DNA of 64,000 nucleotides from Loxodes magnus (Eukaryota; Ciliophora; Karyorelictea; Loxodida; Loxodidae), in the NCBI GenBank assembly GCA_946699065.1, contig CAMPDV010000537.1:62001-126000 (forward strand), in the 5' to 3' direction. Made by a program: the position numbers and the translations under genes. This document shows, in pieces, positions 7,999 to 41,988 of this stretch. The notes beneath the pieces are model-generated. The model ran no database searches. It saw only the letters and a program-made list of their open reading frames with translations, and was not told the DNA's origin. Positions within the stretch are counted from its first letter, which is position 1. The number at the start of each line of letters is the position of its first letter.

Positions 7999-8124
7999 TC
8001 TTTACTAATCAGGTGGAATTCCTTCCTTATCTTAGATCTTAGCCTTAACGTTTTCAATTGAGTCACTTGGTTCGACATCTAAGGTAATAGTTTTGCCAGT
8101 CAGAGTTTTCACAAAGATTTGCAT
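7999..8124 (-). pseudogene. 5' fragment of a polyubiquitin gene at the array edge
   Basis: It has the usual start ([20 protein letters not shown]) and runs through about 42 codons of the first ubiquitin, then ends abruptly at unrelated flanking DNA. The upstream spacer is intact. It carries the TAG codon for Gln40, like the neighbouring genes at this end. Without the hydrophobic core strands after residue 42 it cannot give ubiquitin. Confidence 0.9.
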
Positions 8125-8495
8125 TATTTTTTATAATGTTTTAAAAAAGATTGCCTTTTATGTATTTTTTAAGCCAATACAAATTTACCCTATAAAAGAA
8201 ATCACCATATCTGTTAATTTCTTATATAAATATTCTTAATGCAAATCCTTCAATTTATTATATATTTTTAACTTATTTGTATTCATGACTTACTAACAAA
8301 GTGCTAAAATACTTATAGATTATTTCAATATTATCAATTCATATGCAAGAAAAGTTTTTTAGTTCACCTATTACCATAACACTTTTTTTTAAGTTTGCTC
8401 CATCGTTACTTGAGATTGCTTGTTTAATAAATTTTATATATGATGTAAAATATTCAAAAAATTAGAAGGAAATTTTCAATAAAAAAAATTGTTCA

Positions 8496-9179
8496 TCAAC
8501 CTCTTAGTCTCAATACTAAGTGGAGGGTCGATTCTTTCTAGATGTTATAATCAGATAGAGTTCTTCCATCTTCTAATTGTTTTCCAGCGAATATCAATCT
8601 TTACTGATCAGGAGGAATACCTTCCTTATCTTGAATTTTGGCTTTTACATTCTCAATGGAATCACTTGGTTCTACATCTAATGTTATGGTTTTGCCAGTC
8701 AGAGTTTTCACAAAGATTTACATACCACCTCTTAATCTCAATACTAGATGTAAGGTTGATTCTTTTTAGATATTATAGTCGGATAATGTTCTTCCATCTT
8801 CTAATTGTTTTCCAGCAAAAATAAGTCGTTACTGATCAGGTGGGATACCTTCTTTATCTTATATTTTAGCTTTTACATTCTCAATGGAATCACTTGCTTC
8901 TACATCTAAAGTAATAGTTTTGCCAGTTAGAGTTTTCACAAAGATTTACATGCCACCTCTTAATCTTAAGACCAGATGTAATGTTGATTCCTTCTAGATA
9001 TTATAGTCGGATAAAGTTCTTCCATCTTCCAATTATTTTCCAGCGAATATTAATCTTTACTAATCAGGTGGAATTCCTTCCTTATCTTAGATCTTAGCCT
9101 TAACGTTTTCAATTGAGTCACTTGGTTCGACATCTAAGGTAATAGTTTTGCCAGTCAGAGTTTTCACAAAGATTTGCAT
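8496..9179 (-). CDS. Polyubiquitin, 3 units (array gene 1, reference description)
   Basis: It encodes three head-to-tail ubiquitins of 76, 76 and 75 residues. Ubiquitin is attached through its C-terminal Gly76 to lysines of target proteins. Polyubiquitin is cut by deubiquitinases after each Gly-Gly. Each unit starts [18 protein letters not shown] and has all seven lysines, the IPPDQQRLIFAG segment and LRLRGG. Units 1 and 3 have Pro19 and unit 2 has Ala19; all have Ser22. Several Gln codons are TAA or TAG. Junctions between units are Arg-Gly-Gly-Met. The last unit ends Leu-Arg-Gly and then TGA TGA, so Gly76 is missing. The start ATG sits at a conserved AT-rich spacer. Unit 1 has Leu43 TTA and Gln40 TAG. 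Confidence 0.97.
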
Positions 9180-9547
9180 TATTTTTTATAATGTTTTAAA
9201 AAAGATTGCCTTTTATGTATTTTTTAAGCCAATACAAATTTACCCTATAAAAGAAATCACCATATCTGTTAATTTCTTATATAAATATTCTTAATGCAAA
9301 TCCTTCAATTTATTATATATTTTTAACTTATTTGTATTCATGACTTACTAACAAAGTGCTAAAATACTTATAGATTATTTCAATATTATCAATTCATATG
9401 CAAGAAAAGTTTTTTAGTTCACCTATTACCATAACACTTTTTTTTAAGTTTGCTCCATCGTTACTTGAGATTGCTTGTTTAATAAATTTTATATATGATG
9501 TAAAATATTCAAAAAATTAGAAGGAAATTTTCAATAAAAAAAATTGT
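9180..9547 (-). promoter_or_regulatory. Inter-gene spacer (terminator plus promoter), representative copy
   Basis: The spacer between one gene's start codon and the tandem stop codons of the next gene upstream is the same in every 1055-bp unit. It must hold the 3' end of one gene and the promoter of the next. It is AT-rich, with a T-rich tract just after the stop and TATA-like runs on both strands (for example CCCTATAAAAG on the plus strand). I cannot place the transcription start or a certain regulatory site, and found no clean heat-shock element. Confidence 0.6.
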
Positions 9548-9550
9548 TCA

Positions 9551-38747: not shown

Positions 38748-39118
38748 TATTTTTTATAATGTTTTAAAAAAGATTGCCTTTTATGTATTTTTTAAGCCAA
38801 TACAAATTTACCCTATAAAAGAAATCACCATATCTGTTAATTTCTTATATAAATATTCTTAATGCAAATCCTTCAATTTATTATATATTTTTAACTTATT
38901 TGTATTCATGACTTACTAACAAAGTGCTAAAATACTTATAGATTATTTCAATATTATCAATTCATATGCAAGAAAAGTTTTTTAGTTCACCTATTACCAT
39001 AACACTTTTTTTTAAGTTTGCTCCATCGTTACTTGAGATTGCTTGTTTAATAAATTTTATATATGATGTAAAATATTCAAAAAATTAGAAGGAAATTTTC
39101 AATAAAAAAAATTGTTCA

Positions 39119-40714
39119 TCAACCTCTTAGTCTCAATACTAAGTGGAGGGTCGATTCTTTCTAGATGTTATAATCAGATAGAGTTCTTCCGTCTTCTAAT
39201 TGTTTTCCAGCGAATATCAATCTTTACTGATCAGGAGGAATACCTTCCTTATCTTGAATTTTGGCTTTTACATTCTCAATGGAATCACTTGGTTCTACAT
39301 CTAATGTTATGGTTTTGCCAGTCAGAGTTTTCACAAAGATTTACATACCACCTCTTAATCTCAATACTAGATGTAAGGTTGATTCTTTTTAGATATTATA
39401 GTCGGATAATGTTCTTCCATCTTCTAATTGTTTTCCAGCAAAAATAAGTCGTTACTGATCAGGTGGGATACCTTCTTTATCTTATATTTTAGCTTTTACA
39501 TTCTCAATGGAATCACTTGCTTCTACATCTAAAGTAATAGTTTTGCCAGTTAGAGTTTTCACAAAGATTTACATGCCACCTCTTAATCTTAAGACCAGAT
39601 GTAATGTTGATTCCTTCTAGATATTATAGTCGGATAAAGTTCTTCCATCTTCCAATTATTTTCCAGCGAATATTAATCTTTACTAATCAGGTGGAATTCC
39701 TTCCTTATCTTAGATCTTAGCCTTAACGTTTTCAATTGAGTCACTTGGTTCGACATCTAAGGTAATAGTTTTGCCAGTCAGAGTTTTCACAAAGATTTAC
39801 ATACCACCTCTTAATCTCAATACTAGATGTAAGGTTGATTCTTTTTAGATATTATAGTCGGATAATGTTCTTCCATCTTCTAATTGTTTTCCAGCAAAAA
39901 TAAGTCGTTACTGATCAGGTGGGATACCTTCTTTATCTTATATTTTAGCTTTTACATTCTCAATGGAATCACTTGCTTCTACATCTAATGTTATGGTTTT
40001 GCCAGTTAGAGTTTTCACAAAGATTTACATGCCACCTCTTAATCTTAAGACCAGATGTAATGTTGATTCCTTCTAGATGTTATAATCAGATAGAGTTCTT
40101 CCGTCTTCTAATTGTTTTCCAGCGAATATCAATCTTTACTGATCAGGAGGAATACCTTCCTTATCTTGAATTTTGGCTTTTACATTCTCAATGGAATCAC
40201 TTGGTTCTACATCTAATGTTATGGTTTTGCCAGTCAGAGTTTTCACAAAGATTTACATACCACCTCTTAATCTCAATACTAGATGTAAGGTTGATTCTTT
40301 TTAGATATTATAGTCGGATAATGTTCTTCCATCTTCTAATTGTTTTCCAGCAAAAATAAGTCGTTACTGATCAGGTGGGATACCTTCTTTATCTTATATT
40401 TTAGCTTTTACATTCTCAATGGAATCACTTGCTTCTACATCTAATGTTATGGTTTTGCCAGTCAGAGTTTTCACAAAGATTTACATGCCACCTCTTAATC
40501 TTAAGACCAGATGTAATGTTGATTCCTTCTAGATATTATAGTCGGATAAAGTTCTTCCGTCTTCCAATTATTTTCCAGCGAATATTAATCTTTACTAATC
40601 AGGTGGAATTCCTTCCTTATCTTAGATCTTAGCCTTAACGTTTTCAATTGAGTCACTTGGTTCGACATCTAAGGTAATAGTTTTGCCAGTCAGAGTTTTC
40701 ACAAAGATTTGCAT
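39119..40714 (-). CDS. Polyubiquitin, 7 units (array gene 27)
   Basis: Second seven-unit gene, matching gene 25, with the same intra-unit junction near 40075. Confidence 0.93.
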
Positions 40715-41085
40715 TATTTTTTATAATGTTTTAAAAAAGATTGCCTTTTATGTATTTTTTAAGCCAATACAAATTTACCCTATAAAAGAAATCACCATAT
40801 CTGTTAATTTCTTATATAAATATTCTTAATGCAAATCCTTCAATTTATTATATATTTTTAACTTATTTGTATTCATGACTTACTAACAAAGTGCTAAAAT
40901 ACTTATAGATTATTTCAATATTATCAATTCATATGCAAGAAAAGTTTTTTAGTTCACCTATTACCATAACACTTTTTTTTAAGTTTGCTCCATCGTTACT
41001 TGAGATTGCTTGTTTAATAAATTTTATATATGATGTAAAATATTCAAAAAATTAGAAGGAAATTTTCAATAAAAAAAATTGTTCA

Positions 41086-41769
41086 TCAACCTCTTAGTCT
41101 CAATACTAAGTGGAGGGTCGATTCTTTCTAGATGTTATAATCAGATAGAGTTCTTCCGTCTTCTAATTGTTTTCCAGCGAATATCAATCTTTACTGATCA
41201 GGAGGAATACCTTCCTTATCTTGAATTTTGGCTTTTACATTCTCAATGGAATCACTTGGTTCTACATCTAATGTTATGGTTTTGCCAGTCAGAGTTTTCA
41301 CAAAGATTTACATACCACCTCTTAATCTCAATACTAGATGTAAGGTTGATTCTTTTTAGATATTATAGTCGGATAATGTTCTTCCATCTTCTAATTGTTT
41401 TCCAGCAAAAATAAGTCGTTACTGATCAGGTGGGATACCTTCTTTATCTTATATTTTAGCTTTTACATTCTCAATGGAATCACTTGCTTCTACATCTAAA
41501 GTAATAGTTTTGCCAGTTAGAGTTTTCACAAAGATTTACATGCCACCTCTTAATCTTAAGACCAGATGTAATGTTGATTCCTTCTAGATATTATAGTCGG
41601 ATAAAGTTCTTCCATCTTCCAATTATTTTCCAGCGAATATTAATCTTTACTAATCAGGTGGAATTCCTTCCTTATCTTAGATCTTAGCCTTAACGTTTTC
41701 AATTGAGTCACTTGGTTCGACATCTAAGGTAATAGTTTTGCCAGTCAGAGTTTTCACAAAGATTTGCAT
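41086..41769 (-). CDS. Polyubiquitin, 3 units (array gene 28)
   Basis: The rightmost and therefore first gene in the direction of transcription. Its upstream spacer is cut after about 219 bp at the array edge, so part of the region that may serve as promoter in other copies is missing. TTA/TAG in unit 1, GAC at terminal Asp52. Confidence 0.94.
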
Positions 41770-41988
41770 TATTTTTTATAATGTTTTAAAAAAGATTGCC
41801 TTTTATGTATTTTTTAAGCCAATACAAATTTACCCTATAAAAGAAATCACCATATCTGTTAATTTCTTATATAAATATTCTTAATGCAAATCCTTCAATT
41901 TATTATATATTTTTAACTTATTTGTATTCATGACTTACTAACAAAGTGCTAAAATACTTATAGATTATTTCAATATTATCAATTCATA

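What the first reader, a model, noticed from the sequence alone, without database searches (positions are those of the whole stretch)
7999..41988. A 34-kb chromosomal tandem array of 28 polyubiquitin genes
Polyubiquitin loci normally hold one gene with several ubiquitins; here whole genes with their spacers are repeated head to tail, about 102 ubiquitin units in all, and spacers look as conserved as coding sequence. This resembles rDNA or histone arrays rather than a normal ubiquitin locus. It could be a dosage amplification or a germline-side satellite built from a gene.
Basis: partly seen in the sequence, partly recalled or inferred. Interest (0 to 1): 0.88.

Follow-up and report, generated by a model that had tools for sequence, protein, structure and literature searches.

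The report
Ciliate polyubiquitin gene array, copy-number variable
A stretch of a large ciliate-type genome carries 28 near-identical polyubiquitin genes head to tail, a matching contig carries only 8, and the last ubiquitin of each gene lacks the final glycine needed for attaching it to other proteins.

Summary
Window 7999-41988 holds 28 polyubiquitin genes (minus strand, 102 ubiquitin units, 3-7 per gene, code 6) and a 5' stub at the left edge; 27 of 28 are open. All 28 371-bp spacers are identical. An assembly artefact is unlikely: contig C1577 carries the same locus with collinear flanks and nearly the same edges but 8 genes, and the longest exact self-match in the window's array is 7.2 kb. 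The family has 129 gene ends genome-wide, 50 of them on C32. Unit-order patterns and a duplicated two-gene block point to unequal crossing over and conversion. Between the window's locus and four other array contigs the majority first and last units differ by 0 non-synonymous and 11-35 synonymous changes, so this is a maintained family rather than a decaying satellite. Each array gene should give n-1 usable ubiquitins and one dead-end Ub(1-75). Expression, micronuclear or macronuclear state, and species could not be tested.

The parts
7999..41988 (-). whole array of 28 polyubiquitin genes with 371-bp spacers
7999..8124 (-). truncated stub: about the first 42 codons of a Ub unit, cut at the left array edge; same edge in C1577
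8125..8495 (-). 371-bp spacer between stub and first gene; identical to the 27 others; ATAAAAGG box at -37 from ATG
8496..9179 (-). 3-Ub gene, units DAB, ends RLRG-TGA-TGA
9551..10234 (-). 3-Ub gene, DAB
10606..11289 (-). 3-Ub gene, DAB
11661..12344 (-). 3-Ub gene, MAB
12716..13399 (-). 3-Ub gene, EAB; identical to all 8 genes of the homologous array on C1577
13771..14454 (-). 3-Ub gene, CAB
14826..15510 (-). 3-Ub gene with a 1-bp insertion in the first unit (only broken gene of 28)
15882..16565 (-). 3-Ub gene, CAB
16937..17620 (-). 3-Ub gene, CAB
17992..18675 (-). 3-Ub gene, CAB
19047..19730 (-). 3-Ub gene, CAB
20102..20785 (-). 3-Ub gene, CAB
21157..21840 (-). 3-Ub gene, CAB
22212..22895 (-). 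3-Ub gene, CAB
23267..24178 (-). 4-Ub gene, DONB
24550..25689 (-). 5-Ub gene, CPGAB
26061..26744 (-). 3-Ub gene, CAB
27116..27799 (-). 3-Ub gene, CAB
28171..29082 (-). 4-Ub gene, CRQF
29454..30593 (-). 5-Ub gene, DHGAF
30965..31648 (-). 3-Ub gene, DAB
32020..32703 (-). 3-Ub gene, DAS; 11 clustered differences in the last unit, conversion-like
33075..33758 (-). 3-Ub gene, DAF
34130..35269 (-). 5-Ub gene, DIGHF (first copy of a duplicated 3478-bp two-gene block)
35641..37236 (-). 7-Ub gene, LHKJGAF (first copy of block)
37608..38747 (-). 5-Ub gene, DIGHF (second copy of block)
39119..40714 (-). 7-Ub gene, LHKJGAF (second copy of block)
41086..41769 (-). 3-Ub gene, DAF, 5'-most gene of the array
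41770..41988 (-). 219-bp remnant of the spacer/promoter at the upstream array edge

Best explanation
A real tandem array of complete polyubiquitin genes, each with its own spacer, that grows, shrinks and is homogenised by unequal crossing over and gene conversion at two levels (single Ub units inside genes, and whole 1055-bp gene-plus-spacer units). It most likely serves ubiquitin dosage: many equal promoters make polyubiquitin precursors that deubiquitinases cut after each Gly76. Shown: the arrangement, homogeneity, copy-number difference between two homologous contigs, open frames, and conservation of protein between loci. Inferred: the exchange mechanism, transcription, dosage, processing. 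The array family differs from this genome's ordinary polyubiquitin gene in that the last unit lacks Gly76, so each precursor should release n-1 conjugatable ubiquitins and one Ub(1-75) that E1 cannot activate (established requirement for Gly76, recalled).
For: 28 genes, 102 units, 28 of 28 spacers identical. Second contig C1577 with matching flanks (99.2% over 5561 bp left, 97.8% over 6003 bp right, and a near-identical match 10 kb further right at the expected offset) and 8 genes. Higher-order patterns such as DIGHF-LHKJGAF repeated as a block. More array-type genes on C32, C930, C2553, C6377 and C127, some of which may be pieces of one locus. 107 of 128 gene ends belong to open genes (as corrected). 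Between C537 and C32 the majority first units differ 0 N / 30 S and the majority last units 0 N / 14 S of 51.7 synonymous sites, while spacers differ 11.3% and keep ATAAAAGG at -36/-37 in the three sequences checked. 28 of 28 window genes end RLRG-TGA-TGA; both C118 ends read RLRGGC-TGA-TGA.
Against: No RNA, protein or read-depth data. Post-amplification mutations are too few to show selection inside the array (private alleles 4 N: 4 S, p = 0.22). The 9 N: 79 S count is confounded by conversion. The 0 N result rests on the commonest unit of each contig (for C537 12 of 28 first units and 19 of 28 last units); over all arrays there are 11 distinct proteins among 400 in-frame units. C32 has 11 broken genes and one end without a start among 50, so some copies decay. 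Spacers are not uniform elsewhere: 6 types among 50 on C32 and 6 among 16 on C930. Conversion, and linkage to the spacer, could hold the terminal unit constant without selection on it.
Confidence: 0.72

Rival explanations
1. Germline-limited or selfish satellite: the gene unit has become a satellite that spreads by recombination, with no need for its product, and may be removed or ignored in the expressed nucleus.
For: Window spacers perfectly homogeneous; surroundings with reverse transcriptase fragments and dispersed repeats; relict copies on C1173/C896 and broken genes on C32.
Against: Protein frozen between array loci (0 N in all 15 contig pairs for majority first and last units); 27 of 28 window genes and 107 of 128 ends overall are open; ATAAAAGG box present in the three spacers checked.
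Confidence: 0.15
2. Assembly artefact: copy number inflated or scrambled by the assembler.
For: Units nearly identical; C2553, C930, C127 and C6377 begin inside arrays and C2553 has a 16-kb exact self-match, so the assembler failed there; the homologous contig shows 8 copies.
Against: Longest exact self-match in the window's array is 7195 bp, resolvable by ordinary long accurate reads (read type unknown); both contigs share nearly the same edges and have their own unit make-up; other arrays exist in the assembly.
Confidence: 0.08
3. C1577 is not an allele but a recent segmental duplicate of the locus, so the 28 versus 8 difference is between paralogues. (This concerns the comparison only and is compatible with the best explanation.)
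For: uL3 has only one full copy in the assembly, so haplotypes may be mostly collapsed elsewhere.
Against: For both stretches tested (window 6400-7998 and 52000-54600) only C537 and C1577 match over the full length (40 of 91 and 40 of 68 candidates scored); the flanks are collinear in the parts compared, from window 9 to 7998 with one 0.84-kb gap, from 41989 to about 47985, and 52000-54600 (47986-51999 not compared).
Confidence: 0.2

Closest known systems
Ubiquitin genes of Trypanosoma cruzi (five polyubiquitin genes with 2-52 units: passages of review PMC11354881; a gene with more than 40 units: passages of PMC8122580)
   Same: Very large numbers of Ub units in a protist genome, carried by several polyubiquitin genes.
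   Different: There a few polyubiquitin genes, some very long; here 28 (and, on C32, 50 ends of) short genes with full spacers form arrays, and the terminal unit lacks Gly76. The original T. cruzi papers were not read.
Allelic tandem gene arrays of T. cruzi (tyrosine aminotransferase, flagellar calcium-binding protein; passages of PMC2204015)
   Same: Whole-gene tandem arrays on both homologues, more alike within a homologue than between, with copy estimates of 70 and 60 for one gene.
   Different: Different genes; trypanosome arrays are read polycistronically (recalled).
Canonical polyubiquitin genes (yeast UBI4, human UBB/UBC; passages of PMC8122580)
   Same: Head-to-tail 76-residue units cut after Gly76.
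   Different: In UBI4 the last unit is Gly-Gly plus an extra residue; here it stops after Gly75. Loci usually hold one such gene (recalled).
rDNA and histone-type tandem arrays (concerted evolution, recalled)
   Same: Homogenised units, spacer homogeneity, copy-number difference between homologous copies.
   Different: Protein-coding ubiquitin gene; nested repeat inside the gene.

Membership tests
Polyubiquitin gene | Head-to-tail 76-codon Ub units with Gly-Gly at internal junctions | tested here: met
   102 units; every in-frame internal junction in the window reads RLRGG-M (one internal unit is frame-shifted)
Polyubiquitin gene | Last unit ends Gly75-Gly76 plus extra residue(s) | tested here: not met
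   28 of 28 window genes end RLRG-TGA-TGA; C118 ends meet it (RLRGGC-TGA-TGA)
Polyubiquitin gene | Precursor cleaved to free ubiquitin | not testable with these tools
   no protein data
Concertedly evolving tandem gene array (rDNA/histone type) | Units more alike within the array than between loci, spacers included | tested here: met
   0 differences among 36 spacers of C537/C1577 against 11.3% to the main C32 type
Concertedly evolving tandem gene array (rDNA/histone type) | Copy number differs between homologues | tested here: inconclusive
   28 versus 8 between matching flanks; allele versus recent duplicate not decided
Micronucleus-limited satellite | Absent or reduced in macronuclear DNA | not testable with these tools
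   no macronuclear assembly or reads; no (GGGTTN)4GGG match in the assembly; a GGGGTTTT search did not complete
Pseudogene array | Frames disrupted, relaxed protein constraint | tested here: not met
   27 of 28 open; 0 N between contigs for majority first and last units

The most novel reading that the evidence does not exclude
The array is a dedicated source of a built-in dead-end ubiquitin. About one unit in four (28 of 102 in the window) is Ub(1-75), which can be built upon but never attached, so copy number would set both the ubiquitin pool and the level of a natural chain-capping or chain-anchoring ubiquitin, maintained by selection across two array lineages whose spacers differ by 11%.
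Probability: 0.15. Interest if true: 0.8.

Novelty: new variant of a known kind. Interest (0 to 1): 0.55.

Why it matters
Ubiquitin loci are textbook cases of concerted evolution inside one gene. This locus shows what looks like the same process at two nested levels, with two homologous copies caught at 28 and 8 genes and older sister arrays in the same genome, so rates and tracts can be measured. The uniform loss of Gly76 from the terminal unit, in a family kept otherwise nearly frozen, raises a directly testable question: does a cell tolerate, or use, a large natural supply of non-conjugatable ubiquitin?

Tried and rejected
Tetrahymena identity: judged unlikely. The Tetrahymena breakage motif (recalled) is not enriched (2 matches at 3 mismatches against 4.65 expected). 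No (GGGTTN)4GGG match. uL3 matches the PDB chain 5xxb best (583 bits; Toxoplasma by recall), with 4v8p (Tetrahymena by recall) at 536 bits. Organism: code 6 holds in uL3 (6 TAA, 5 TAG, 0 TGA in a 446-codon stop-to-stop frame). The SSU rRNA is 1669-1671 nt in three copies. A litostomatean-type ciliate is my guess from recalled SSU lengths, not a test.

N-terminal extension: the window frame is open upstream of the first Ub ATG, but the peptide is not conserved in the other spacer types, so rejected.

Intron or frameshift restoring Gly76: I looked by eye in the spacer and saw no acceptor that gives Gly-Gly; no tool was run, so it is not excluded.

Selection inside the array: nearest-neighbour count 9 N: 79 S was set aside as conversion-confounded; the private-allele count 4 N: 4 S is inconclusive.

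Spacer identity between C537 and C1577 as proof of cross-allele homogenisation: dropped, because flank divergence is uneven (0.7-1.9% mismatches beside the array, near-identical 10 kb away).

First gene-integrity script used a wrong stop offset and start motif and reported no intact genes; redone. One search counted 108 open genes, but on C127 it mis-sized two genes; one search shows one open 3-unit gene and one cut at the array edge, so the count used is 107 of 128.

Papers: none on polyubiquitin gene arrays in ciliates was noticed in the listings (20 of 37 papers listed); only titles and abstract starts were seen there. Liu, Shi and Gong 2013 on ciliate polyubiquitin genes was seen only as a reference entry and could contain more. 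Of four papers I saw passages only.
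Full report
What is there. Reading the window with code 6, the minus strand from 41769 down to 8496 carries 28 polyubiquitin genes and 102 ubiquitin units, plus a stub of about 42 Ub codons at 7999-8124 and a 219-bp spacer remnant at the other edge. Twenty genes have three units, two have four, four have five and two have seven. One 3-unit gene has a 1-bp insertion; 27 of 28 are open. All 28 spacers are 371 bp and identical.

Is it real? The genome in which the window lies (G000, 705.7 Mb, 7843 contigs) holds a second contig, C1577, with the same locus. Flanks match at 99.2% over 5561 bp on the left and 97.8% over 6003 bp on the right; the left array edge is the same and the right one the same to a few bases. 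A 2.6-kb stretch 10 kb to the right also lies at the expected offset, and only these two contigs match it over its full length (40 of 68 candidates scored); the same holds for window 6400-7998 (40 of 91 scored). Between these edges C1577 has 8 genes, all identical to each other and to the window's gene at 12716-13399. So the two assembled homologous copies carry 28 and 8 genes. A 0.84-kb piece of the window's left flank (1601-2440) has no counterpart in C1577, and one 1.6-kb flank piece matches at 93.8%, so the copies are not trivially the same sequence. uL3 has one full copy in the assembly, so I cannot exclude a recent duplicate in place of an allele. The longest exact self-match in the window's array is 7195 bp, against 15987 bp in C2553, whose contig starts inside its array; this fits an assembler that resolved the window's array. 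Read data were not available.

How it got there (inferred). Labelling Ub units by DNA haplotype gives an order such as DAB x3, MAB, EAB, CAB runs, then DONB, CPGAB and, near the right end, the block DIGHF-LHKJGAF twice. This is the pattern expected of unequal crossing over of gene-plus-spacer units and of Ub-unit exchange inside genes. Concerted evolution of polyubiquitin is well described (PMC6332867, passages).

The family. A pattern for the array-type gene end, up to one mismatch, finds 129 places (which lists 100 of them): 50 on C32, 28 on C537, 16 on C930, 2 on C127, 1 on C108 from that list, and 8 on C1577, 18 on C2553 and 6 on C6377. Of 128 ends examined on seven contigs, one search counted 108 open genes; one search corrects this to 107. 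The other 21 are 17 broken genes, one gene cut at the C127 array edge, and three ends without a start (at the contig starts of C2553 and C6377 and at the upstream edge on C32). The contigs C930, C2553, C127 and C6377 each show one array edge only and may be parts of fewer loci; their flanks do not settle it. Spacers fall into two lineages 11.3% apart: the window's type (with the relict on C1173 at 94.9%) and the C32 type (with C108 at 92.4%). The window's and C1577's spacers are all one type, and so are the 18 on C2553, but C32 has 6 types among 50, C930 6 among 16 and C6377 2 among 5. Relicts with degraded Ub codons sit on C1173 and C896.

The terminal unit. In the window 28 of 28 genes end Arg-Leu-Arg-Gly-TGA-TGA. 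Over eight contigs 123 last units are read in frame to RLRG-stop (28 C537, 8 C1577, 47 C32, 14 C930, 17 C2553, 5 C6377, 2 C127, 2 C108). Exceptions are broken copies: for example two C32 genes (1253083-1254222 and 1254599-1255966) have a frameshift inside the last unit. The relicts on C1173/C896 also end RLRG-stop. The ordinary polyubiquitin gene on C118 ends Arg-Gly-Gly-Cys-TGA-TGA, and eL40 fusions on C41, C133 and C81 have Gly-Gly. In uL3, TAA and TAG are read as Gln and no TGA occurs inside. Thus a six-base difference at the end removes Gly76. A review notes that in yeast UBI4 the last unit carries an extra residue after Gly-Gly (PMC8122580, passages).

Selection. Taking the commonest first and last unit of each of six contigs, all 15 pairs give 0 N. 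Between C537 and the other four non-homologous contigs there are 28-35 S in first units and 11-15 S in last units, of 51.7 synonymous sites. These majority units are 12 of 28 first and 19 of 28 last units on C537, 19 and 11 of 40 on C32, and 10 and 4 of 14 on C930. Over 400 in-frame units there are 71 DNA haplotypes and 11 proteins. The array family is therefore old and its protein has been kept, the Gly76-less unit included, although conversion from other units and linkage to the spacer could do this without selection on that unit. Inside arrays, private alleles are 4 N: 4 S, which decides nothing.

Spacers differ less between loci (11.3%) than synonymous sites do (14 and 30 of 51.7 between C537 and C32). 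ATAAAAGG lies at -36 or -37 from the ATG in the three spacers checked, S0, S1 and C108; the longer TATAAAA is there in S0 and C108 but not in the window's type. This fits, but does not prove, one promoter per gene.

Function. The most likely reading is ubiquitin dosage by many equal genes, as in rDNA-type arrays; each precursor gives n-1 usable ubiquitins and one Ub(1-75). Expression and processing are inferred.

Organism. Code 6, an SSU rRNA of 1669-1671 nt, rDNA units repeated along contigs and a uL3 best matched by the PDB chain 5xxb fit a ciliate other than Tetrahymena; this is inference. Whether the DNA is micronuclear is unknown. Reverse transcriptase fragments and dispersed repeats around the array would fit a germline genome.

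Noticed in passing
window 58370-58762 (-), 62891-63343 (+): Reverse-transcriptase-like fragments (RVT_1); the 62891 match is below the Pfam cut-off.
   Followed up: partly
window 54790-55362 (+): Protein kinase domain fragment, about 109 residues of the domain.
   Followed up: no
window 6400-7700: Dispersed repeat family next to the array edge, with copies at 67-85% identity on contigs such as C2072, C285, C636, C431 and C7674 (40 of 91 candidates scored).
   Followed up: partly
G000 rDNA contigs such as C1649, C1892, C3669: SSU rRNA motifs repeat along contigs at about 6.3-7.6 kb, on C3669 about 13.5-13.7 kb apart, which may be larger spacers or inserted units.
   Followed up: no
L027 (C108), 149219-150047: Two single-Ub genes in tandem with an array-like 373-bp spacer, 72 and 73 of 76 residues matching the template, both ending RLRG-stop: an unamplified or shrunken relative.
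   Followed up: partly
L018-L019 (C118), 411108-420090: The ordinary polyubiquitin gene occurs as a 6-unit copy and a second, disrupted copy 6.3 kb away.
   Followed up: partly
L020 (C32), 4001-6500: The upstream flank of the C32 array carries a repeat with many copies at about 90-94% identity on other contigs (40 of 2293 candidates scored).
   Followed up: no
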